Source of the DNA: Marinobacter daqiaonensis
GTDB lineage: Bacteria > Pseudomonadota > Gammaproteobacteria > Pseudomonadales > Oleiphilaceae
Assembly: GCF_900115285.1 (NCBI RefSeq)
Contig: NZ_FOYW01000001.1
Location: forward strand, 472,376 to 536,375
Direction of reading: 5' to 3'
DNA: 64,000 bases
The position numbers and the translations under genes are program-made. The notes under the pieces are model-generated. The model was not told the origin of the DNA. It was given only the letters and a program-made list of their open reading frames with translations, and did no database searches. Below are positions 41,531 to 51,380 of this stretch, piece after piece. Each line of letters opens with the position of its first letter. Position 1 is the stretch's first letter.

Positions 41531-41621
41531 GGTGGGCTGGCAGAGTGGCTGAATGCAGCGGTCTTGAAAACCGCCGAAGGTTAATAGCCTTCCCGGGGTT
41601 CGAATCCCTGGCCCACCGCCA
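41531..41621 (+). tRNA. tRNA-Ser (anticodon UGA)
   Basis: A 91-base class II tRNA with acceptor GGTGGGC paired to GCCCACC, anticodon loop CTTGAAA (UGA), a long variable arm and T-arm GGTTCGAATCC. G73 and an encoded CCA fit serine identity. A T tract follows. Confidence 0.96.
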
Positions 41622-41645: not shown

Positions 41646-42221
41646 CTATCCCCGTTCGTACTTCAGCACTCTTTTCACTGCACCCAGATAGAGCCTGACG
41701 GCGGTCCTGTCGGCCTCCGGTACTTTTGTCACCTTGGCCAGCAGTGCGGCGCTGTGACTCAACATATTCCGCATACTCGCTTTCTGTTCGGCCGAGAAAT
41801 TCGGGTTATTGGCCAGATCTGCGCTTATGTGGGGGATTTCCGCCTCCAGCGTGGGTGCCGTATCACCCATTTCCAGACTCATGACTGCCAGCATCACCCG
41901 GTCGCCAACACTGGACCAGGTATCGACATCGGCGAAACCATGCTCCTCAACGAGCCGCTCCAGGACGTCATGGGCGTCATGGCCCACCAGGAGCGCCACC
42001 GTATCCGAGACCAGCACCGACACCGGGGTGTCCTTCTGTTTCATCCCCTGATCCCATGCCTCGTCCAGCGCGTGGAGATAGGTGTCACTGGTCTGTAATG
42101 CCTCCATCACCGCCACGAACCGCTTGACCTGCCCTTCGCTGAGGGGCGAGGACCATGCCTGCGCCGCCACCAGGAATCCCGCCAGGAAAAATACCAGTAT
42201 CCCCGAGTATGCCCTTGTCAC
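41646..42221 (-). CDS. Exported protein of unknown function
   Basis: A 191-residue protein with a signal peptide (core GILVFFLAGFLVAAQAWS, cut near residue 24). The mature part is predicted almost wholly helical and acidic, with SEGQVKRFVAVMEAL, DTVALLVGHDAHDVLERLVEEHGF and SMRNMLSHSAALLAKVTKV. No family is recognised, and there is no lipobox. The start is GTG with GGGAGG eight bases before it. It is convergent with tRNA-Ser and divergent from the GNAT gene across 160 bases. Confidence 0.72.
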   Translation of the reverse strand: MTRAYSGILVFFLAGFLVAAQAWSSPLSEGQVKRFVAVMEALQTSDTYLHALDEAWDQGMKQKDTPVSVLVSDTVALLVGHDAHDVLERLVEEHGFADVDTWSSVGDRVMLAVMSLEMGDTAPTLEAEIPHISADLANNPNFSAEQKASMRNMLSHSAALLAKVTKVPEADRTAVRLYLGAVKRVLKYERG

Positions 42222-42381: not shown

Positions 42382-42984
42382 ATGACATGTCACTTCACCT
42401 GGATAGATTCCCCATTGCCCGTGGATGCCCTCGGCGGTGCCCTGTGGCGCCTCCTGGGAGCCACGGCAGGGGAAGACGCCATTCTCGGCATTGATGATCA
42501 GCACGACAGCAAGGCGCAGGAAGCCCTTCTGCGCCAACTGAAACAGACGCTGGCCGGCGGTGGTCACCTGCTGATCGGCAGCGTTCATGGGCGGCTGGTG
42601 GTTGCCTGCGTGCTCAAGCCCCAGTCCTTGCCCACGACCTGCCACCTTGCGGAATTGCAGAAGGGTGTTATCGCACCCGAGTACCGGGGCCAGGGTCTGC
42701 TGCCTGCCGCCCTGCGCCAGATCACCGAAAAAGCCCGCCAGCTGGGAGTCAGTCGGCTTTTGCTGGACGTCAGGGCGGGCTCCCTGCCTCACCGGCTCTG
42801 GCAGCACTGGGGCTTCAGGACGTTTGGCGTGCTGGAGGACTATGCCCGTCACAACGGTGAGGTATTTGCCGGCCACTTCATGCAGCAGAGCGTCGACGAC
42901 CTCGCCATCCGGGTTGCCCGTCGCCTGAACAAAAGCCGTTACCCAAAGGACACCGGGGCCACGACGGCCTCATCGGATCAATGA
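42382..42984 (+). CDS. GNAT-family N-acetyltransferase
   Basis: A 200-residue GCN5-related acyltransferase. The acetyl-CoA motif A is LQKGVIAPEYRGQGLLPAALRQI near residues 94-116, with the RGQG loop clear, and HRLWQHWGFRTFGVLEDY is the typical C-terminal strand and Tyr region. The frame runs back 120 bases, but GGAG six bases before the ATG at 42382 favours the inner start. It appears to be the first gene of a five-gene operon with the diiron enzyme. Substrate unknown. Confidence 0.83.
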   Translation: MTCHFTWIDSPLPVDALGGALWRLLGATAGEDAILGIDDQHDSKAQEALLRQLKQTLAGGGHLLIGSVHGRLVVACVLKPQSLPTTCHLAELQKGVIAPEYRGQGLLPAALRQITEKARQLGVSRLLLDVRAGSLPHRLWQHWGFRTFGVLEDYARHNGEVFAGHFMQQSVDDLAIRVARRLNKSRYPKDTGATTASSDQ

Positions 42985-43008
42985 CCACAATCTCCAAGGA
43001 ACCGAGAT

Positions 43009-43731
43009 ATGCTGATGGAACGTAATGAATTTCGTGCTGAACTGAACCGTACTCTCCAGCACAACCTGACCCTGAGCCACCCGCTCTTCGCCCTGCTCCT
43101 GAATGCCGATAACCCGGACATCCACCTGCTCCGGAAAGTGGCGCTACAGGGCTACCAGCTTACCCGGCACTTCCTGACCTACATAGAGCATCTGTTTTTC
43201 TTCTGCCCGTTGCCGAAGCACAAGCGCCACCTGCTGTTCAACATGTTCGAGGAAGAAACCGGCCGGCTCTCCCGCACCAAGAACCACGTCCACCTCATGG
43301 AGGACTTCCTGCGTGCCCTGGGCATCAGCGACCAGGAGCGGGACAAGGTGACTGCCCTGCCCGCCACCCAGGAGCTGATCGATTACCGCATGGACGCCTG
43401 CACCAACCCGGAGCGCTATCACATCGGCGCGGCGGCGGTACTGGTTGCCAGCGAAGGGCAGAATCTCGAGACCCTGGGTGAAGATGCGAGGCACACGATT
43501 CTGGGCCGGGTATTCGGGCTTCAGGAAAAAGATCTGCTGTTCTTTTCCGTTCATCAGAAGGAGGATGTGGCCCACGTCCGGCAGGGTCTGGACCTGGTCG
43601 CCGATCTCTGTACCACGGCGGCCATGCAGAAAGAGGCGCTGTTTGCGGTGAACCATACCTGCCGGCTTTTCTATGGCATGTACGAGGGCATCTACCAGAC
43701 CCTCGGACAGCCGGAACAGGCTCATGTCTGA
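43009..43731 (+). CDS. Haem-oxygenase-like diiron oxidase/oxygenase (HDO) family protein
   Basis: A 240-residue all-helical protein of the TenA/PqqC-like, 'iron-containing redox enzyme' superfamily. A full diiron ligand set can be read: one of E81-E83 in FEEETG, H93 in NHVHLMEDFLRALG, E149 in VASEGQ, and H182-D186-H189 in HQKEDVAHVRQG (H-x3-D-x2-H). This fits HDO enzymes (UndA, BesC, SznF type) rather than cofactor-free PqqC. Such enzymes cleave or oxygenate amino or fatty acids. It overlaps the MFS gene by eight bases. AAGGAACCGAG precedes the start. The reaction is unknown. Confidence 0.8.
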   Translation: MLMERNEFRAELNRTLQHNLTLSHPLFALLLNADNPDIHLLRKVALQGYQLTRHFLTYIEHLFFFCPLPKHKRHLLFNMFEEETGRLSRTKNHVHLMEDFLRALGISDQERDKVTALPATQELIDYRMDACTNPERYHIGAAAVLVASEGQNLETLGEDARHTILGRVFGLQEKDLLFFSVHQKEDVAHVRQGLDLVADLCTTAAMQKEALFAVNHTCRLFYGMYEGIYQTLGQPEQAHV

Positions 43732-45034
43732 CGCCATCCCATCCGCAAACGCCTCCCGGCAACTATGGGGGGTCGTTGCCGTCGGCTTTGGCGTTATGTT
43801 CCTCAGTTCGTCCATCAAGGGCGCCTACCAGGTCTATTTCCGGGACCTGGCAGACCTGTTCGATCTGGGGCGCGGCCAGTTCGCCCTGAGCGGGGCGCTG
43901 TTCGGTCTCTGCCTTGGTGTGGTTTCACCGCTGGTGGGCACCATTTGTGATCGCTACGGTCCCTACCGGTCGATGATCTCCGGCGCCCTGGTAGCGGCAC
44001 TGGCGTTTGTGTTGCTGGGAGTCTTCCAGAACTTCCCGCTGTTCCTGATCGCCTACGGCGTGCTTGCAGCCTACGCCCTGGCGGCCATGACCTTCGTGCC
44101 GATGGGGGTCTGGATCGACAGCGTCTTCGCCGAGCGCCACAAGGGGCTGGCCTATGCCGCGGTCAGCAACGGGGTGGCCATCGGCTTTATTGTGCTGTCG
44201 CCACTTTGGGTCTGGCTGAACACCTGGCTCCACTGGTCGGCCCTGGCGCTGGCCATCGGCTTCGGCTTCCTGATGGCCGTGGCCGCGCCCCTACACTGGG
44301 CGGCCCGTCATCTCCCTGTCGACAGGCCGTCGGATACCAGTGGCCGGCCATCCGGTCGGCCGGTGGCCGGCATCCTGGCGGAGCTTCACCAGCCCCTGTT
44401 CATTCTGCTGGCCATCAGTTTCGCCGGATGCGGCTCTTCCATGGCCTTCATCGATCTGCACTTCGTCCCCCTGGTGCAGGAAACGCCGGTCACCGCCCAC
44501 CAGGACACCTCCACGGTGCTTGCCCTGTCCCTGAGCATTCTGGGTGTTTTCGAGCTCGCCGGCGCGATGGCGGCGGGTTACCTGGCGGGCAAGGTCCAAC
44601 CCGCCATGCTGCTGGCGCTCCTGTACGGCGTGAGGGCCCTGATCCTGACCTGGCTCGCCGTCTCTCCCAGCAGCGTGACCTTTGTGGTGTTCGCGGCGGT
44701 CTTCGGGGCAACCTATATGGGCACGGTGATTCTGACGTCGCTGCTGTGTCTCCGACTCTATGGCCCGGCAATCAAAGGCCGGATGTTCGGCCTGCTTTTC
44801 ACCGTCCACCAACTCGCGGTCTTTGGCACCGCCTGGGCTGGCGGACTGGCCAGGGACATCACTGGCAGCTACATGCTCACCACCCTCGGCGTTGCGGCTT
44901 TCTGTACACTGTCGGTGGTCGCCGCCATTGTCCTGCTTGCCGTCGCGCAGAAGGCAGAAAACGATACCGCTGAACAGGCGCCGGACCCGATCGCCAGTGC
45001 GGGTATGCCCGGCGGCCAGGGGCAGGGACACTGA
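43724..45034 (+). CDS. MFS transporter
   Basis: A 436-residue major facilitator carrier with about 12 helices and two homologous halves. Motif-A-like DRYGPYRSMISGALVAAL follows helix 2, with a central hydrophilic loop near SDTSGRPSGRPVAGI. Overall pattern resembles monocarboxylate/oxalate-type MFS members. It may export the product of the surrounding enzymes or import their substrate. The ATG overlaps the diiron gene and has GGAACAGG before it; the longer upstream frame is inside that gene and was rejected. Confidence 0.85.
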   Translation: MSDAIPSANASRQLWGVVAVGFGVMFLSSSIKGAYQVYFRDLADLFDLGRGQFALSGALFGLCLGVVSPLVGTICDRYGPYRSMISGALVAALAFVLLGVFQNFPLFLIAYGVLAAYALAAMTFVPMGVWIDSVFAERHKGLAYAAVSNGVAIGFIVLSPLWVWLNTWLHWSALALAIGFGFLMAVAAPLHWAARHLPVDRPSDTSGRPSGRPVAGILAELHQPLFILLAISFAGCGSSMAFIDLHFVPLVQETPVTAHQDTSTVLALSLSILGVFELAGAMAAGYLAGKVQPAMLLALLYGVRALILTWLAVSPSSVTFVVFAAVFGATYMGTVILTSLLCLRLYGPAIKGRMFGLLFTVHQLAVFGTAWAGGLARDITGSYMLTTLGVAAFCTLSVVAAIVLLAVAQKAENDTAEQAPDPIASAGMPGGQGQGH

Positions 45035-45114
45035 TGCCCCCGCAGACACAATACCTGACCGGCCCGGCACAAGTAGGGCCCGTTCATACGGAGCATCGAC
45101 CACAAGGAGACGTC

Positions 45115-46308
45115 ATGCCATCGCACAATAACCTCACCCAGGCACTTCACTGCACGAGGGCCAACGGCGACGACGCCCACGCCGCTCCCATCTGGATGAC
45201 TTCCGCCTATGATTTTGATTCCGCTGAGCAGGCCAGCGACCGCTTCAACAATCTATGTCCGGGCAATATCTACAGCAGGTTCACCAACCCCTCCGTGAGC
45301 GATTTCGAGCGCCGTCTCGCGATTCTTGAACACGGTGAGGAAGCTGTCGGCACCGCATCCGGCATGGGCGCGTACCTGGCACTGGCGATGGCGTTTCTGG
45401 GCCAGGGTGACCACGTTCTCCTGGGCGCCGGCATGTTCGGCTCCACGGCGCACCTGTTCCGACAGTATCTGGGACAGTTCGGTGTCGAGAGCCAGACTCT
45501 GCCAGTGGGCCATACCAGCCTGTGGGCGCAGTCCATTCGCCCCAATACCAGGATGCTGATTCTGGAGACGCCGCTGAACCCCACGATGGAGGTGGCGGAT
45601 ATCGCGGCCCTGTCGGTGATTGCCCGGGACAACGGTGTCCTGCTGGTCGTGGACAATACTGTCCTCTCTCCCATATGCCAACAACCGCTACGCTTCGGCG
45701 CAGACCTGGTGGTGCAGTCCGCGGGCAAGTTTATCGACGGTCAGGGCCGGTGTGTCGGAGGAGCCCTGGTGGGTGATTCCCAGCGGATCCAGTCGGTGCG
45801 GGGCGTGCTGAGAAGCGCGGGCATGTGCATGAGCCCCTTCAATGCCTGGGTCCTTGCCGCCAGCCTGGAGACACTCCATGCCCGCATGCGCCTGCACGAG
45901 ATCAATGCCCGGCAACTGTGCTGCTGGCTCGAACGCCATCCGATGGTGACGGCCGTGCATTATACCGGCCTCCCCGGGCGGCCCGACGAGACCCTGATTG
46001 CCCGCCAGCAAACCGGTCATGGCGCCCTGATCAGCGTCGACATCAAGGGTGGCCAGCCTGCTGCCTGGGCGTTTATCAATGCCCTGCGCCTGGTTGCCCG
46101 GTGCACCAATATCGGCGATGCCCGCACCATGGTCACCCATCCCTGGTCCACCACCCACTGTCGATACACCCCCGATGAAAAAACCGCGAGCGGAATCGGT
46201 CCGGGGCTGGTCCGCTTCTCGGTAGGCCTTGAACCACCGGAAGACGTCATCGGCGACATCGAGCAGGCCCTGGCCCAGGCGTCCCAAACCCAGAGGAAAA
46301 CCGCATGA
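45115..46308 (+). CDS. Cys/Met-metabolism PLP enzyme (MetZ-like, gamma-elimination/replacement)
   Basis: A 397-residue fold-type I PLP enzyme related to O-succinylhomoserine sulfhydrylase and cystathionine synthases. AAPIWMTSAYDFDSAEQA, YSRFTNPSVSDFERRLA and GMGAYLALAMAFL are typical, and the PLP-Lys lies in VVQSAGKFIDGQGRCVGG. The usual motif is SATK[YF]-x-DG[HQ], so Thr is replaced by Gly just before the lysine. The C-terminal THPWSTTHCRY and GLVRFSVGLE bind the substrate carboxylate. The ATG at 45115 has AAGGAG five bases upstream. The role may be biosynthetic for methionine or for a specialised sulfur amino acid. Confidence 0.88.
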   Translation: MPSHNNLTQALHCTRANGDDAHAAPIWMTSAYDFDSAEQASDRFNNLCPGNIYSRFTNPSVSDFERRLAILEHGEEAVGTASGMGAYLALAMAFLGQGDHVLLGAGMFGSTAHLFRQYLGQFGVESQTLPVGHTSLWAQSIRPNTRMLILETPLNPTMEVADIAALSVIARDNGVLLVVDNTVLSPICQQPLRFGADLVVQSAGKFIDGQGRCVGGALVGDSQRIQSVRGVLRSAGMCMSPFNAWVLAASLETLHARMRLHEINARQLCCWLERHPMVTAVHYTGLPGRPDETLIARQQTGHGALISVDIKGGQPAAWAFINALRLVARCTNIGDARTMVTHPWSTTHCRYTPDEKTASGIGPGLVRFSVGLEPPEDVIGDIEQALAQASQTQRKTA

Positions 46309-47183
46309 TCCGATTGATACATCTTTGGACCCTGTTGCTGGCGCTCTCAACCACAGCGGTTGCCGATGAAACATCCGCAACGCCCTGGCCCTGGAACTAC
46401 CGGTTCGTCGCCTTCCCGGTACCGGGGCTCGACTCGCCGGTGGCCGGGCGTCTCAGTTTCCCGGCTACGGTGGAGACGGCTGTACCCGCGGTCATCATCG
46501 CCCATGGCTCCGGGGGCGTGGATGCCAGGGGCCCGCTGTACGCGAGGCGACTCAATGAGGCAGGCATCGCCACCCTGGAAATCGACATGTGGTCCGCCCG
46601 GGGCATGAACGGTGGCCTTGACCGTCCGACCCATGTCCGGGAGACATTCCCGGATGCCCGCGCCGCCCGTGATTACCTGGCCTCCCTGAGCGACATCCGC
46701 GGCGAGCGTATCGGCCTGATGGGCTTTTCCTGGGGTGGGGTGATGGCCATGCTCAGCGCTGGCGGGACGGAAGCCGATCCCGGGGGGTTCGACGCGCTGG
46801 TTGCCCTTTATCCGGTGTGCTGGGGATACAACCGGGTGCCCGGATACGAGCTTGAGGCCATCGCCGTCGACGACCTGCTGATCATCGCCGGAACCCAGGA
46901 CGACTACGATGGCCGGGATGACTGCGACAGGCTGGTGTCTTCGCTTCCGGAACAGGATCGGCGCAAGGTTGAGTTACTGGTACTCAACGAGGCCACTCAT
47001 GCCTTCGACCAGCGCGCACCGGCAACCACCTTCAATGACCCCTATGCTCACCGGGGCAAGGGGGGCGATGTGGCCATACGGTACAATCCCGCCGCGACCA
47101 AACATGCGCTGTCCCGGGTGACCACGTTCTTTTCCGAGAACCTTTCCGGGACACCTGGTCAGAAACAGGCAGATGCTCATTAG
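46305..47183 (+). CDS. Exported dienelactone-hydrolase-like alpha/beta hydrolase
   Basis: A 292-residue alpha/beta hydrolase with a signal peptide (about 1-20, ending TAVADE). The catalytic Ser lies in LMGFSWGGVMAML, the acid in GTQDDYDGRDD and the His in EATHAFDQRAP. AHGSGGVDARGPLY forms the oxyanion region. It is periplasmic by prediction, so it is likely to act on an imported or exported ester or lactone. A four-base overlap with the PLP enzyme gene puts it in the same operon, and the GlxA-type gene converges on it seven bases away. Confidence 0.85.
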   Translation: MIRLIHLWTLLLALSTTAVADETSATPWPWNYRFVAFPVPGLDSPVAGRLSFPATVETAVPAVIIAHGSGGVDARGPLYARRLNEAGIATLEIDMWSARGMNGGLDRPTHVRETFPDARAARDYLASLSDIRGERIGLMGFSWGGVMAMLSAGGTEADPGGFDALVALYPVCWGYNRVPGYELEAIAVDDLLIIAGTQDDYDGRDDCDRLVSSLPEQDRRKVELLVLNEATHAFDQRAPATTFNDPYAHRGKGGDVAIRYNPAATKHALSRVTTFFSENLSGTPGQKQADAH

Positions 47184-47190
47184 TGTCCCG

Positions 47191-48171
47191 CTATGGGGCG
47201 TCGGGCCGCCTGCCCTCCTGCTCCCGGGGATGCCCCCTGAGGAGGCTCGGCGCGGTGTCGTATTTCCGCATCCAGGCCTCCCGGAAGGCCCGGGTACTCT
47301 GGAAGCCGGACTTTTCCGCTACCAGCTCGATGGAGTCCCGTCCATCGGCCAGCAGCTCTCTCGCCTTTTCCAGTCGCAGAGCGGTCAGGTAACCCTTGAT
47401 GGAGATGCCCGTGCTGGCCTTGAAAAGACGCTGCAGGTGTCTCGTTGAGACCCGGTGGGCCGCCGCCAGACCGGAGACTGTCAGCGGCTCCCGGAAAGCC
47501 CGCACCATGTGGTCCTGCACCTCATGGATCAGCGGACTGACGTGATTGTGGTGCCGGAGATGCTCGGAAATCTGGGGATCCTCCCCCATCCGGCGGTTAT
47601 GCACCACCAGTTCCCTGGCAGTGTCGATTGCCACCCGGCAGCCCCGAAGGCGGGCGATGAGATATAGGGTCAGGTCGATACCCGCGGTCACCCCCGCTGA
47701 CGTCAACAGGTTGCCATCTTCCACGAAAATGCGTTCGCGGGTCACCCTCGCTTTTGGAAACGCCTCGTTCAGTGCCTGCAGCAGTCGATGATGGGTGGTA
47801 CATTGGCGGTCGTCCAGCAGGCCCGCCTCCCCCAGAACGAAAGTCCCTGTACAGATTCCCACCAGGGTTGCACCCAATCTGTCCGCGCGATTCAGCCAGT
47901 CAGTCAGCCGGCTGTCCCGGGCCGCAGCCATAACCTGAGGCGTCAGTTTCATACCACAGACGAAAATCAGGCTATCGGCGGTGACGGTCTCCGGCAATGG
48001 CTCGACATTTCCGATTGCTGGCCCCTGCCAGCAATTGACTGAGGCCCCGAGGCCCACGAAACGCGGTCGGAAAAAGCCTCCGTGAAGCTCATTACACTCA
48101 TGGATAGCCTGCACCGGGCCTGCCATGTCAAGCAGATGAACGTCCGGAAGCAGCAGGAAATAAACATCCAT
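47191..48171 (-). CDS. GlxA-family transcriptional regulator (DJ-1/PfpI + AraC HTH)
   Basis: A 326-residue regulator. Residues 1-185 form a class I glutamine-amidotransferase-like (DJ-1/PfpI) domain that opens FLLLPDVHLLDMAGPVQA and holds GTFVLGEAGLLDDRQCTTHH. Residues about 220-320 are an AraC-type double helix-turn-helix with LAAAHRVSTRHLQRLFKASTG and AEKSGFQSTRAFREAW. Related regulators control catabolism of quaternary amines and amino acids. It faces the diiron/PLP operon tail to tail and diverges from the TRAP genes, so either could be a target. AAAGGAG precedes the ATG. Confidence 0.9.
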   Translation of the reverse strand: MDVYFLLLPDVHLLDMAGPVQAIHECNELHGGFFRPRFVGLGASVNCWQGPAIGNVEPLPETVTADSLIFVCGMKLTPQVMAAARDSRLTDWLNRADRLGATLVGICTGTFVLGEAGLLDDRQCTTHHRLLQALNEAFPKARVTRERIFVEDGNLLTSAGVTAGIDLTLYLIARLRGCRVAIDTARELVVHNRRMGEDPQISEHLRHHNHVSPLIHEVQDHMVRAFREPLTVSGLAAAHRVSTRHLQRLFKASTGISIKGYLTALRLEKARELLADGRDSIELVAEKSGFQSTRAFREAWMRKYDTAPSLLRGHPREQEGRRPDAP

Positions 48172-48367
48172 GTCGGCTCCTTTTGTTTGAGTAAAGGGGG
48201 CGGTTTTCTTGCCTTATTATCAATGTTTTGCCAGTCTAAAAAAGCATTAACGCAAAAAACCGCGGCGAGCTCCGGGGCATTCCTACCCGGGGTCGGGGCC
48301 CATTTTTATAATAATAAAGCCGGTCAGAGCCCAGCCGTACCTCTTGAGGACGATGGAGAAGAAAGGC

Positions 48368-49399
48368 ATGAACAAGAGCACAACTTTACGCAAGATCACT
48401 GGCGCATCCTGCCTCACCCTGGCTGCAGCCATCGGCGCAACCAGTGTGGCCAACGCCGCCAACTGGCGGTATGCCCACGAGGAGTATGATGGTGATGTGC
48501 AGGACGTGTACGCCGAGCACTTCAAGGATTACGTGGAGGAGAACTCCGACCACACCATCCAGATTTTCGAATTCGGTCAGCTGGGTGAATCCGACGACAT
48601 CATGGAGCAGACCCAGAACGGGATTCTGCAGTTCGTCAACCAGTCTCCCGGCTTCACCGGTTCGCTGATTCCGGAAGCCCAGATTTTCTTCATACCCTAT
48701 CTGATGCCCACGGACATGGACACGGTCGTCGAGTTCTTCCGGGAGAGTGAAGCCATCAACGAGATGTTCCCCAAGCTCTACGCGGATGCTGGTCTCGAGC
48801 TTCTTCAGATGTATCCGGAAGGGGAAATGGTGATCACCCTTGACGAGCCGGTGACTTCTCCGGAAGGGATGAAGAACAAGAAGATCCGGGTCATGACCAA
48901 CCCCCTGCTGTCGGCCACTTACGAGGCCTTCGGTGCCACGCCCACACCCCTGCCCTGGGGCGAGGTATACGGCGCCCTGCAGACCAATATGATCGATGGC
49001 CAGGAGAACCCCATCTTCTGGATCGAGTCAGGTGGTCTCTACGAGGTCTCTCCGAACCTGGTCTTCACCGGTCACGGCTGGTTCACCACCGCCATCATGG
49101 CCAACAAGGACTTCTATGACGGCCTCTCCGATGAAGACCAGAAGCTGGTCAGGGACGCGTCCGACTACGCCTTCGAGAAGATCATTGTCCACATCGACGG
49201 CCTCGCGGATGAGTCCCTTGAGGAAATCAAGAAAGCCAGCGACAAGGTAACGGTGACCCGCCTGAACGAGGAGCAGATTGAAGCTTTCCGCAAGCGTGCG
49301 CCCAAGGTCGAGGAAGCCTTCATTGACATGACTGGCGAAAGCGGCAAGGAGCTGCTTGAGCAGTTCAAGGAAGACCTGAAGGAAGTCCAGAAGGACTGA
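48368..49399 (+). CDS. teaA: TRAP substrate-binding protein, TeaA-like (ectoine/hydroxyectoine)
   Basis: A 343-residue periplasmic DctP-type solute receptor. Signal peptide to about residue 30 (ANA cut). In mature numbering the residues known to bind ectoine in Halomonas TeaA appear at the same positions: E9, F66, R144, W167, N184, W188 and F209. This ligand set is recalled from the TeaA structure and not re-checked. Import of ectoine fits a salt-adapted organism. The ATG follows AGAAAGGC; an ATG 24 bases upstream is less likely. A 16-bp hairpin separates it from the permease genes. Confidence 0.85.
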   Translation: MNKSTTLRKITGASCLTLAAAIGATSVANAANWRYAHEEYDGDVQDVYAEHFKDYVEENSDHTIQIFEFGQLGESDDIMEQTQNGILQFVNQSPGFTGSLIPEAQIFFIPYLMPTDMDTVVEFFRESEAINEMFPKLYADAGLELLQMYPEGEMVITLDEPVTSPEGMKNKKIRVMTNPLLSATYEAFGATPTPLPWGEVYGALQTNMIDGQENPIFWIESGGLYEVSPNLVFTGHGWFTTAIMANKDFYDGLSDEDQKLVRDASDYAFEKIIVHIDGLADESLEEIKKASDKVTVTRLNEEQIEAFRKRAPKVEEAFIDMTGESGKELLEQFKEDLKEVQKD

Positions 49400-49407
49400 A
49401 TCAGGCA

Positions 49408-49441
49408 ACGCCTGGGGCAGAGCAGGCTCTGCCCCAGGCGT
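49408..49441 (+). other. Intercistronic mRNA hairpin between teaA and teaB
   Basis: ACGCCTGGGGCAGAGC pairs perfectly with GCTCTGCCCCAGGCGT across a two-base gap. There is no T tract, so it is unlikely to be a full terminator. It may protect the receptor mRNA and lower permease expression, a common layout in binding-protein transporters. Confidence 0.75.
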
Positions 49442-49475
49442 ACCTCCCCGCGGTTGACCAAATGGAGTTCTCATC

Positions 49476-50066
49476 ATGACCAATTCAGCCACTGAACCGG
49501 ATGAGGCGGAAGGCTACGCTTCCGGACTGCCCGGCGTGCTGGGTGTTATTGACCTCGCGATTGCGAAGGTAGAGGCGTTCATGCTGGCCGCGGGCGTTCT
49601 GCTGATGGCGCTGAACACCTGTATCAACGTCATCGCCCGCTTTGTATTCGGTGAGGGTCTTTTCTTTTCCGGTGAGATCAACCGGATCCTCATCATTCTG
49701 ATCACCTTCGCCGGCATCGGTTACGCGGCCCGCCACGGCCGTCACATCCGCATGTCCGCGATTTACGACACCCTGCCCCCCAAGGGGCGCAAGGCACTGA
49801 TGATCTTCATCTCCCTGTTCACCGCCGCGATGATGTTCTTCATCTGCTACTACTCGGTGGAATACATTCTCAATCTCTACGCCCGGGGCCGGGTCCTGCC
49901 GGCATTGGGAATTCCGATCTGGACCATTTATGTCTGGGTGCCGGTTGGCACCGCCATCACTGGCATCCAGTATGTGCTGACGGCAATCCGTAACCTGACT
50001 GCCCGCGATGTCTATATTTCCACGGCCGTGCTGGACGGGTACACCGACAACGAGTCAGAAGTCTGA
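49476..50066 (+). CDS. teaB: TRAP transporter small permease, TeaB-like
   Basis: DctQ-type four-helix subunit, 196 residues. The first helix is [30 protein letters not shown], and [21 protein letters not shown] is the conserved loop after helix 2. It scaffolds the large permease in a sodium-driven tripartite transporter. Family identity is firm, and TeaB naming follows from the receptor and the Usp partner downstream. Confidence 0.9.
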
Positions 50067-50096
50067 CCATCGGAAGAACGAAAAAAGGAACAAGAA

Positions 50097-51380
50097 ATGG
50101 CTACCACGCTGATAGTGATCATGATCGTGCTGCTTCTGCTTGGCTTTCCGATGATGATCCCGCTTCTCACCGCTGCGGTGGTCGGCTTCTACACCATGTT
50201 CGATGGCTTCGGCCAGATGACCACACTGATCCAGCAGATGATGGGGGGCATCCGCCCCGCTTCCCTGATTGCCGTTCCCATGTTCATCCTGGCAGCCGAC
50301 ATCATGACCCGGGGCCAGTCCGCCGACCGGCTGATCAACATGGTCATGGCGTTCATCGGTCATATCAAAGGCGGCCTGGCAATCAGTACCGCCACCTCCT
50401 GCACCCTGTTCGGGGCGGTTTCCGGCTCCACCCAGGCCACCGTGGTGGCGGTTGGCTCACCCCTGCGGCCAAAACTGCTCAAGGCCGGCTACTCGGATTC
50501 CTTTACCCTGGCTCTGATCATCAATGCCAGTGACATTGCCTTCCTGATACCCCCCAGTATCGGGATGATCATCTACGGGGTCATCTCTGAAACCTCCATT
50601 GCAGAGCTGTTCATCGCCGGGATTGGTCCCGGGGTCATGATCCTGATCATGTTCTCCCTGTACAGCCTGATCTACGCCTACGTCAACAAGGTTCCCACCG
50701 AGACCCGGTCCACTTGGACGGAGCGCATGCGTTCGGTCCAGCAGGCGCTCTGGCCCCTGTTCTTTCCTGTTATCATCGTCGGCGGTATCTACGGGGGCAT
50801 TTTCAGCCCCACCGAGGCCGCTGCGGTCTGCGTGCTCTACGCCCTTTTGCTGGAATTCGTGATCTTCCGGTCACTGAAGGTGATGGATATCCACCGGATC
50901 GCCAAGTCCACGGGTCTGATCACTGCAGTGGTCTTCATACTGGTTGCCGCGGGTAACGGTTTCTCCTGGATCATTTCCTTTGCCCAGATTCCCCAGGCCA
51001 TCCTGGAGGCTGTGGGGGTCAATGATGCAGGCCCGGTCGGGGTTCTCGTCGCCATCTGCATCTCGTTCTTCATTGCCTGCATGTTCGTGGATCCCATCGT
51101 GGTTATTCTGGTGCTGACGCCCATATTCGCACCGGCGATCCAGGCCACGGGGCTGGATCCCGTGCTGGTGGGTGTTCTGATCACCCTTCAGGTCGCGATC
51201 GGCTCAGCCACACCGCCCTTCGGCTGCGACATCTTCACGGCAATCGCGATCTTCAAGCGGCCCTATTGGGAGGTCATCCGGGGAACACCACCCTTCATCT
51301 TTATGCTGATCCTTGCGGCTGCCCTTATCATTGCGTTCCCGCAAATCGCCCTGTTCCTCAGGGACATGGCATTCCGTTAA
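50097..51380 (+). CDS. teaC: TRAP transporter large permease, TeaC-like
   Basis: DctM-type channel subunit of 427 residues with about 12 helices. Characteristic stretches are IPMFILAADIMTRG-like PMFILAADIMTRGQSADRLI, SGSTQATVVAVGS, NASDIAFLIPPSIGMIIYG and GVLITLQVAIGSATPPFGCDIF. It moves the solute in symport with sodium. AAAAAGGAACAAGAA precedes the ATG, and the gene lies 30 bases from teaB. Confidence 0.93.
   Translation: MATTLIVIMIVLLLLGFPMMIPLLTAAVVGFYTMFDGFGQMTTLIQQMMGGIRPASLIAVPMFILAADIMTRGQSADRLINMVMAFIGHIKGGLAISTATSCTLFGAVSGSTQATVVAVGSPLRPKLLKAGYSDSFTLALIINASDIAFLIPPSIGMIIYGVISETSIAELFIAGIGPGVMILIMFSLYSLIYAYVNKVPTETRSTWTERMRSVQQALWPLFFPVIIVGGIYGGIFSPTEAAAVCVLYALLLEFVIFRSLKVMDIHRIAKSTGLITAVVFILVAAGNGFSWIISFAQIPQAILEAVGVNDAGPVGVLVAICISFFIACMFVDPIVVILVLTPIFAPAIQATGLDPVLVGVLITLQVAIGSATPPFGCDIFTAIAIFKRPYWEVIRGTPPFIFMLILAAALIIAFPQIALFLRDMAFR

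What the first reader, a model, noticed from the sequence alone, without database searches (positions are those of the whole stretch)
42382..47183. Five-gene operon joining a haem-oxygenase-like diiron enzyme, a gamma-type PLP enzyme, an MFS carrier, a GNAT and an exported hydrolase
Genes are packed with 24-base, overlap, 80-base and overlap spacings. The diiron protein keeps a full ligand set (E81-83, H93, E149, H182, D186, H189), as in HDO enzymes that make alkenes, nitroso groups or cleaved amino acids. The PLP enzyme is of the homoserine/cystathionine class, and the carrier plus periplasmic hydrolase suggest that a product or precursor crosses the membrane. I know no described pathway with this set. 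It is the best candidate for an undescribed small-molecule system in the window.
Basis: partly seen in the sequence, partly recalled or inferred. Interest (0 to 1): 0.72.

Follow-up and report, generated by a model that had tools for sequence, protein, structure and literature searches.

The report
Undescribed diiron-enzyme amino-acid operon
A small set of genes that travels together in scattered bacteria looks like an undescribed route to an exported amino-acid-like compound, built around an oxygen-using iron enzyme and an altered relative of a toxin-resistance enzyme; the gene set is real, but its product is unknown.

Summary
In detail: five ORFs at the stated places and spacings, and an HDO protein with an intact ligand set (invariant in 19 of 19 aligned relatives) and the HDO fold. 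The unit differs from the one proposed: across ten loci GNAT-HDO-MFS-PLP keeps one order in 8; a GATase/AraC regulator, here 47191-48171 (-), is present in 10; the exported hydrolase in 2. Elsewhere the HDO-GNAT pair lacks this MFS and gamma-PLP but sits with an SbnA-type PLP enzyme (8 of 8 loci) or a nicotianamine-synthase-family enzyme (2 of 3): three unrelated families that attach an aminocarboxyalkyl group to a nucleophile. The GNAT's nearest solved relative is tabtoxin-resistance protein; the family kept its pocket residues and lost its acetyl-CoA motif. The HDO lacks the sacrificial residues of PABA synthases. Best reading: biosynthesis and export of a gamma-substituted 2-aminobutanoate, worked on by the HDO. 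Conservation is shown; substrates, product and chemistry are inferred. My paper searches found no description.

The parts
42382..42984 (+). GNAT-fold protein, tabtoxin-resistance-like; keeps TTR's E92/K95/D130 equivalents (E91, K94, D129) but has W140 for Y141 and RGQGLL for motif A
43009..43731 (+). HDO diiron protein of a clade next to CADD/PabS; ligands E82, H93, E149, H182, D186, H189; F27 and R161 where CADD has Tyr27 and Lys152; 4-residue insert between E82 and H93
43724..45034 (+). MFS carrier, weakly closest to lactate/oxalate-formate (OFA/MCT) carriers
45115..46308 (+). gamma-type PLP enzyme, MetZ paralogue with SAGK instead of SATK at the PLP lysine (alternative start 45034)
46305..47183 (+). 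DLH-type alpha/beta hydrolase with a signal-peptide-like N-terminus (by eye); accessory, 2 of 10 loci
47191..48171 (-). DJ-1/PfpI plus AraC HTH regulator (FtrA/GbdR-like), homologue present in 10 of 10 loci of this context

Best explanation
A biosynthetic operon for an exported, non-proteinogenic alpha-amino acid. SHOWN: conserved gene set and regulator; intact HDO ligand set and fold; a MetZ paralogue beside a true MetZ elsewhere in the genome; a TTR-like GNAT with conserved pocket residues; the HDO-GNAT pair recurring with an SbnA-type PLP enzyme or a nicotianamine-synthase (NAS) family enzyme in place of the gamma-type PLP enzyme. INFERRED: the gamma-type PLP enzyme replaces the leaving group of an O-acyl-homoserine (as MetZ does with sulfide) by a nucleophile X, probably an amine, giving a 2-amino-4-X-butanoate. 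NAS/CntL enzymes make the same skeleton from SAM, and SbnA makes the one-carbon-shorter one from a serine ester; so the constant HDO-GNAT pair acts on X or on the joined product, using O2. The GNAT binds, and perhaps acylates, the amino acid, as TTR, PAT and ArsN1 do with 2-amino-4-X-butanoate inhibitors of glutamine synthetase. The MFS exports the product and the regulator senses an amino-acid-like ligand. Use: an antimetabolite is my first guess, a nicotianamine- or staphylopine-like metallophore the second.
For: Order GNAT-HDO-MFS-PLP in 8 of 10 loci, regulator in 10 of 10. HDO-GNAT within 5 kb in 18 of 21 loci read. Partner enzyme: gamma-PLP in 9 of 10 context-A loci; SbnA-type PLP in 8 of 8 of contexts B and C (two tested, 324 and 320 bits against a cut-off of 350); NAS family in 2 of 3 of contexts D and E (70 and 65 bits, Pfam cut-off 27; thermoNicotianamine synthase 7e-21 and 3e-21, then CntL). 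Own MetZ L041 scores over both MetZ cut-offs, four context-A copies tested score under both; SAGK in 9 of 9 context-A copies. GNAT: TTR first by profile (6e-15, next 1.9e-6) and fold (Z 21.6, rmsd 2.1, 169 residues, next 19.3).
Against: No product, substrate or nucleophile is known and no reaction is shown. The GNAT family lacks the acetyl-CoA motif (0 of 16 have G/A at its last position; 8 of 16 have G at the fourth) and TTR's general acid (W in 16 of 16), so acylation is doubtful. The MFS and regulator resemble proteins of uptake and catabolism. L028 has the HDO with no GNAT and no such partner gene; L062 has only a remnant of the PLP gene. Context-A HDOs do not form one well-supported clade. 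The NAS-like proteins score far under the CntL model (23-24 bits against 350). That SbnA and NAS/CntL use amine nucleophiles is recalled.
Confidence: 0.48

Rival explanations
1. Catabolic or detoxifying operon: the MFS imports a toxic or nutrient amino acid (canavanine-like or thioether-like), the gamma-type PLP enzyme cleaves it as a gamma-lyase, the GNAT-like protein and HDO modify it or its fragments, and the GATase/AraC regulator induces the operon.
For: Regulator hits FtrA and GbdR models (179 and 138 bits, below cut-off) and the MFS hits lactate/oxalate-formate carriers. PLP-dependent gamma-lyases for canavanine exist (passages of PMC10018355). The GNAT relatives TTR, PAT and ArsN are detoxifiers.
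Against: The same HDO-GNAT pair (HDO 54-62% identical) is built into PKS/NRPS clusters, which are biosynthetic, and NAS/SbnA-type partners build rather than cleave. The canavanine-lyase paper is not held, so its sequence was not compared.
Confidence: 0.22
2. BesC/BesB-like logic: the HDO cleaves or desaturates a free amino acid (for example lysine) to an unsaturated amino acid, and the gamma-type PLP enzyme then works on its beta/gamma carbons, giving an allyl-, vinyl- or alkynyl-glycine that is exported.
For: BesC-BesB is the known HDO plus PLP pair: BesC fragments 4-chlorolysine, BesB eliminates chloride (passages of PMC10187165; section 7 of PMC13108848; that BesB is a gamma-type PLP enzyme is recalled). 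BesC is the next HDO after the PABA synthases in the profile search (2e-9).
Against: No halogenase among the eight genes tested, and BesB uses the chlorine as leaving group. Fold match to BesC (Z 19.4) is below CADD 27.0, HrmI 23.8, UndA 21.9 and FlcD 21.8. It does not explain the SbnA-type and NAS-type partners elsewhere.
Confidence: 0.14
3. The HDO is a PABA synthase of the CADD/PabS type and the neighbours are incidental.
For: Nearest solved relatives are CADD and the Nitrosomonas enzyme.
Against: The sacrificial Tyr27 and Lys152 of CADD (passages of PMC11965152) are replaced: no Tyr in 17 of 17 clade sequences that reach position 27, and Arg161 in 18 of 18 at the Lys column, while the PabS-like control L021 has Tyr and Lys. 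One pairwise alignment puts D159 at the Lys column instead; that is no Lys in the window either. NCBIfam CADD score 86.7 against a cut-off of 200.
Confidence: 0.02

Closest known systems
BesC/BesB of the beta-ethynylserine pathway
   Same: HDO in one pathway with a PLP enzyme, acting on free amino acids
   Different: No halogenase; HDO closer to CADD than to BesC; GNAT, MFS and regulator instead
CADD / NePabS self-sacrificing PABA synthases
   Same: Closest HDO fold and sequence; six metal ligands
   Different: Sacrificial Tyr and Lys replaced; 4-residue insert before the ligand His; embedded in a conserved operon
Tabtoxin-resistance protein (TTR) and PAT/ArsN1/methionine-sulfoximine acetyltransferases
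   Same: Best sequence and fold match; pocket/base residues E/D91, K94, D129
   Different: Last position of the acetyl-CoA motif lost in 16 of 16; Tyr141 replaced by Trp in 16 of 16; tied to an HDO
MetZ (O-succinylhomoserine sulfhydrylase)
   Same: 50% identical to this genome's own MetZ; PLP lysine, DGQGR stretch
   Different: SAGK for SATK; below both MetZ model cut-offs in the four copies tested
SbnA and nicotianamine synthase / CntL
   Same: Their relatives take the place of the gamma-type PLP enzyme beside the HDO-GNAT pair in other bacteria
   Different: Not in the window; both kinds score below the SbnA and CntL equivalog cut-offs
Mangotoxin MboA and its cluster
   Same: HDO in a compact cluster for an amino-acid-derived antimetabolite
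   Different: ATP-grasp ligases and a dedicated redox partner there, none here (PMC13185094: first part of the text and passages seen)

Membership tests
HDO superfamily | 3 His / 3 carboxylate ligand set | tested here: met
   E82, H93, E149, H182, D186, H189 invariant in 19 of 19 aligned sequences
HDO superfamily | haem-oxygenase-like helical fold | tested here: met
   model pLDDT 92.5; CADD 1rcw Z 27.0, rmsd 1.8, 211 residues
HDO superfamily | diiron binding and O2-dependent turnover | not testable with these tools
   needs protein; coordinates of the model were not available either
CADD/PabS PABA synthase | sacrificial Tyr27 | tested here: not met
   F27 in the window; F, V, I or L in 17 of 17 clade sequences that reach it; Tyr in control L021
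CADD/PabS PABA synthase | amine-donor Lys152 | tested here: not met
   Arg161 in 18 of 18 clade sequences, Lys in control L021; one search aligns D159 instead
BesB/BesC-type pathway | HDO and gamma-type PLP gene in one operon | tested here: met
   9 of 10 context-A loci
BesB/BesC-type pathway | Fe/2OG halogenase that installs the leaving group | tested here: not met
   none among the eight genes tested
TTR acetyltransferase | E92/K95/D130 pocket and base residues | tested here: met
   E 8 and D 8 of 16; K 15 and R 1 of 16; D 16 of 16 (roles from passages of PMC4964394 and PMC3202874)
TTR acetyltransferase | motif A (R/Q)xxGx(G/A) for acetyl-CoA | tested here: not met
   last position G/A in 0 of 16, fourth position G in 8 of 16; TTR and the next two PDB relatives have it
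TTR acetyltransferase | general acid Tyr141 | tested here: not met
   Trp in 16 of 16
MetZ O-succinylhomoserine sulfhydrylase | NCBIfam equivalog cut-offs (522 and 510 bits) | tested here: not met
   window 466 and 430.5; L024 515 and 484, L009 495 and 468, L022 471 and 424; own L041 685 and 575
MetZ O-succinylhomoserine sulfhydrylase | S-x-T-K around the PLP lysine | tested here: not met
   SAGK in 9 of 9 context-A copies; SATK in L041, SLTK in L042
Canavanine gamma-lyase | sequence or activity match to the characterised enzyme | not tested
   paper not held

The most novel reading that the evidence does not exclude
The GNAT-fold partner is no longer an acetyltransferase: it kept the amino-acid pocket of a toxin-resistance enzyme, lost the CoA machinery, and now binds and presents an aminocarboxyalkyl compound to a diiron HDO, as a dedicated partner that in two lineages shares its reading frame. 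This two-part oxidase would be a movable module that evolution has joined to three unrelated enzymes (gamma-type PLP, SbnA-type PLP, nicotianamine-synthase type) which all make its substrate or use its product.
Probability: 0.22. Interest if true: 0.8.

Novelty: new variant of a known kind. Interest (0 to 1): 0.6.

Why it matters
The HDO review seen here says about a dozen HDOs are functionally validated among more than 10,000 sequences (PMC13108848 section 4). This clade offers a compact pathway with its own regulator, and three natural experiments (gamma-PLP, SbnA-type and NAS-type partners) that narrow the substrate to an aminocarboxyalkyl compound and make the HDO step testable. If the product inhibits glutamine synthetase or binds metal it is of direct interest; if the GNAT has become a non-acylating HDO partner it is a new enzyme arrangement.

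Tried and rejected
PABA synthase: rejected on the sacrificial residues. Known RNA control: only two tRNAs at gathering scores in 126 kb from five sources. Plasmid carriage: no match in 72,556 plasmid records at 1e-10. FVG (gvg) cluster as a relative: passages show carbamoyltransferase-based genes, the term heme does not occur. Naming the product of the PKS/NRPS clusters: I read genes over about 74 kb of one Burkholderia region (L012, L038-L040) but could not tie it to a known compound; one search found no paper. A seventh carboxylate ligand (E60): could be of the 3H/4C type, not testable without coordinates. Paper searches aimed at the gene set that found nothing on it; several listings were cut (15 of 179 papers shown, 12 of 107, 25 of 39, 12 of 17). 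Searches were about canavanine, FVG and tabtoxin-type resistance. SznF did not appear in the fold or profile listings; that excludes nothing.

Caution on the shared frames: in L024 and L018 GNAT and HDO lie in one open frame (447 and 475 codons stop to stop), but an internal Met precedes the HDO in both, and near relative L061 has stops between them, so one translated protein is not shown. L019 (MAG) lacks the HDO N-terminus and a GNAT hit; L062 lacks a GNAT hit, HDO residues 1-39 and nearly all of the PLP gene: both are kept in the counts. In three strong hits (G1192, G1247, G1162) I saw only the HDO and left them out of the counts; three others (G1066, G954, G1185) have the coordinates of L012, L014, L017 and are not counted twice. 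Weak HDO hits (26-35% identity) are not counted.

Full report
WHAT IS THERE. The window is part of a 3.93 Mb genome (G000, contig 8). Five co-directional ORFs follow one another: GNAT 42382-42984, HDO 43009-43731, MFS 43724-45034, PLP enzyme 45115-46308 (or from 45034), DLH-type hydrolase 46305-47183. Pfam assigns PF00583, PF14518, PF07690, PF01053 and PF01738. The next gene, 47191-48171 on the minus strand, is a DJ-1/PfpI plus AraC-type regulator. The stretch 42382-47183 is 63.1% GC, the window 60.4%.

THE HDO. Six ligands (E82, H93, E149, H182, D186, H189) are invariant in all 19 sequences of alignment A1. AlphaFold2 gives mean pLDDT 92.5. Closest solved folds are CADD (1rcw, Z 27.0, rmsd 1.8, 211 residues), then PqqC 24.0, HrmI 23.8, UndA 21.9, FlcD 21.8, BesC 19.4, HamA 18.9, PolF 18.5. 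By profile the 4-aminobenzoate synthase 9pj4 (3.4e-73) and CADD (2e-39) lead, then BesC (2e-9) and UndA (2e-8); A1 contains one PabS-like row (L021), which favours the first two. CADD's sacrificial Tyr27 and Lys152 (passages of PMC11965152) are replaced by F/V/I/L (17 of 17 that reach the position) and Arg (18 of 18). A 4-residue insert separates E82 and H93 relative to CADD. I had no coordinates, so the grouping of the ligands in space is inferred from the match to CADD, not measured.

HOW FAR THE OPERON IS CONSERVED. In 163 genomes of the same family, 5 match the HDO; three hold orthologues (own, 79%, 74%), the others only 26-27% matches. In a sample of 398 genomes of the phylum 3 match at 1e-15 (own, one at 65%, one PabS-like at 35%), in 369 of the class 3 (own, one with two copies at 52 and 49%, the PabS-like one), and in 349 of the family of G487 eleven, of which ten at 59-67% identity and one at 29%; the samples overlap. 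A pattern scan of GTDB genomes gave 12 loci. So it is sporadic. I read the neighbourhood of 21 loci. Context A (window, L022, L023, L008, L009, L019, L024, L060, L061, L062): regulator 10 of 10, HDO 10 of 10, MFS 10 of 10, PLP 9 of 10, GNAT 8 of 10, hydrolase 2 of 10 (window and L022); GNAT-HDO-MFS-PLP in the same order and strand in 8 of 10. L019, a Pseudonocardiales MAG contig, has another order and a truncated HDO; L062 looks decayed.

THE HDO-GNAT PAIR ELSEWHERE. Context B is seven loci (L010, L011, L012, L014-L017; Burkholderia, Variovorax, Pelomonas, Mitsuaria, Cupriavidus). There the HDO is followed by an AMP-ligase, an AMP-ligase/carrier protein and a PKS, and in the one cluster read further by two condensation-domain proteins (families tested on the L012/L038 cluster; gene calls are mine). 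GNAT, a PF00291 PLP enzyme and an Amidohydro_2 protein lie within about 5 kb on the other strand; homologues of the PLP enzyme, AMP-ligase and amidohydrolase are in 7 of 7. In L013 (context C) GNAT-HDO is followed by a related PLP enzyme and an AMP-ligase fused to NRPS-like parts. Both PLP enzymes tested score best against SbnA (324 and 320 bits, cut-off 350). L018 (D) has GNAT and HDO in one frame with an AMP-ligase, an Amidohydro_2 protein, a PanP-like decarboxylase (495 bits, cut-off 606), an NRPS and a NAS-family protein. G589 has L027 (E), where a NAS-family protein lies between HDO and GNAT, and L028, with HDO alone. The two NAS-family proteins are 44% identical to each other and match thermoNicotianamine synthase (3e-21 and 7e-21) and, weakly, CntL, 'D-histidine 2-aminobutanoyltransferase'. 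In all, GNAT is within 5 kb of HDO in 18 of 21 loci, and a gamma-PLP, SbnA-type or NAS-family gene is present in 19 of 21. In the HDO tree the seven context-B loci and three whose context I did not read form one clade (99/99), while context A is not joined into one well-supported clade.

THE GAMMA-TYPE PLP ENZYME. It is nearest MetZ (PDB 9iqh). The genome has two further PF01053 enzymes over the Pfam cut-off: L041, a MetZ by both models and 50% identical to this one, and L042, over the O-acetylhomoserine/O-acetylserine sulfhydrylase cut-off. Four context-A copies tested fall under both MetZ cut-offs. All nine context-A copies carry SAGK at the PLP lysine, against SATK in L041 and SLTK in L042; that this residue touches the PLP phosphate in relatives is recalled. 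A DNA pattern for this stretch hit 3 of 398 sampled genomes: two context-A genomes and one other protein, by eye.

THE GNAT. Profile search of the PDB puts tabtoxin-resistance protein first (6e-15; next 1.9e-6), and so does the fold (model pLDDT 89.5; 1ghe Z 21.6, rmsd 2.1, 169 residues; next 19.3; many PAT, ArsN and PA4866-type acetyltransferases at 17-18). In TTR E92 and D130 are the proposed base, Y141 the general acid, and (R/Q)xxGx(G/A) binds acetyl-CoA (passages of PMC4964394); K95 helps to form the pocket (passage of PMC3202874). In 16 aligned family members the pocket residues are kept (E 8 or D 8; D 16 of 16; K 15 and R 1), but the Tyr is Trp in 16 of 16 and the motif's last position is never G or A. 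NCBIfam gives only weak hits (RimI in 13 of 16, ArsN1 in 4 of 16).

WHAT IT MOST LIKELY DOES. The constant element is HDO plus GNAT; the partner is one of three unrelated enzyme types whose known members attach a 3-amino-3-carboxypropyl (MetZ-like, NAS/CntL) or 2-amino-2-carboxyethyl (SbnA) group to a nucleophile (recalled apart from the PDB names). This points to an aminocarboxyalkyl compound as substrate or product of the pair. The GNAT's relatives act on phosphinothricin and arsinothricin (passages), methionine sulfoximine and tabtoxinine-beta-lactam; that all four are 2-amino-4-X-butanoates is recalled chemistry. A MetZ paralogue makes that skeleton. Hence the proposal of a gamma-substituted amino acid, exported by the MFS. 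The nucleophile, the HDO step, the role of the GNAT and the use of the product (antimetabolite or metallophore) are not known; catabolism (0.22) and BesC/BesB-like fragmentation (0.14) remain open.

NOVELTY. Seven searches of an open-licence full-text library aimed at such a set found no paper describing it; subscription papers are mostly missing from it and longer listings were cut. The parts are of known kinds; their combination, the reuse of the HDO-GNAT pair with three kinds of partner, and the loss of the CoA motif are what is new.

Noticed in passing
window 41531-41621: A tRNA-Ser(TGA) gene lies about 0.75 kb upstream of the operon; in fetched loci of relatives without the operon the surroundings of this tRNA differ (four have hemH on the other strand), so it may be a rearrangement or insertion hot spot.
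   Followed up: partly
L012 and L038-L040 (Burkholderia sp. MS389, chromosome 3): An AMP-ligase/PKS/NRPS cluster with the HDO-GNAT pair, an SbnA-like enzyme, a MauG-like protein, a RidA-like protein, a terminal NAD_binding_4 (reductase-like) domain and, by eye, a second cysteine-synthase-like gene; related clusters in Variovorax, Pelomonas, Mitsuaria and Cupriavidus. Product unknown to me.
   Followed up: partly
   Followed up: partly
window 43186-43188 (HDO Glu60): Glu60 is conserved in 15 of 15 sequences of contexts A-D that reach it, Gly in L027/L028 and Ser in L021; it could be an extra carboxylate ligand as in 3H/4C HDOs.
   Followed up: no
L062 (G1141): A decayed copy of the operon: regulator, partial HDO and MFS remain, only a C-terminal remnant of the PLP gene and no GNAT hit.
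   Followed up: partly
window 41646-42221, minus strand: A 191-aa exported-looking protein beside the operon has no Pfam or NCBIfam match at 0.001.
   Followed up: no
window 48344-51380: A DctP-type TRAP transporter operon follows the regulator; its DctP gene was not found in the two same-genus loci read (L022, L023).
   Followed up: no
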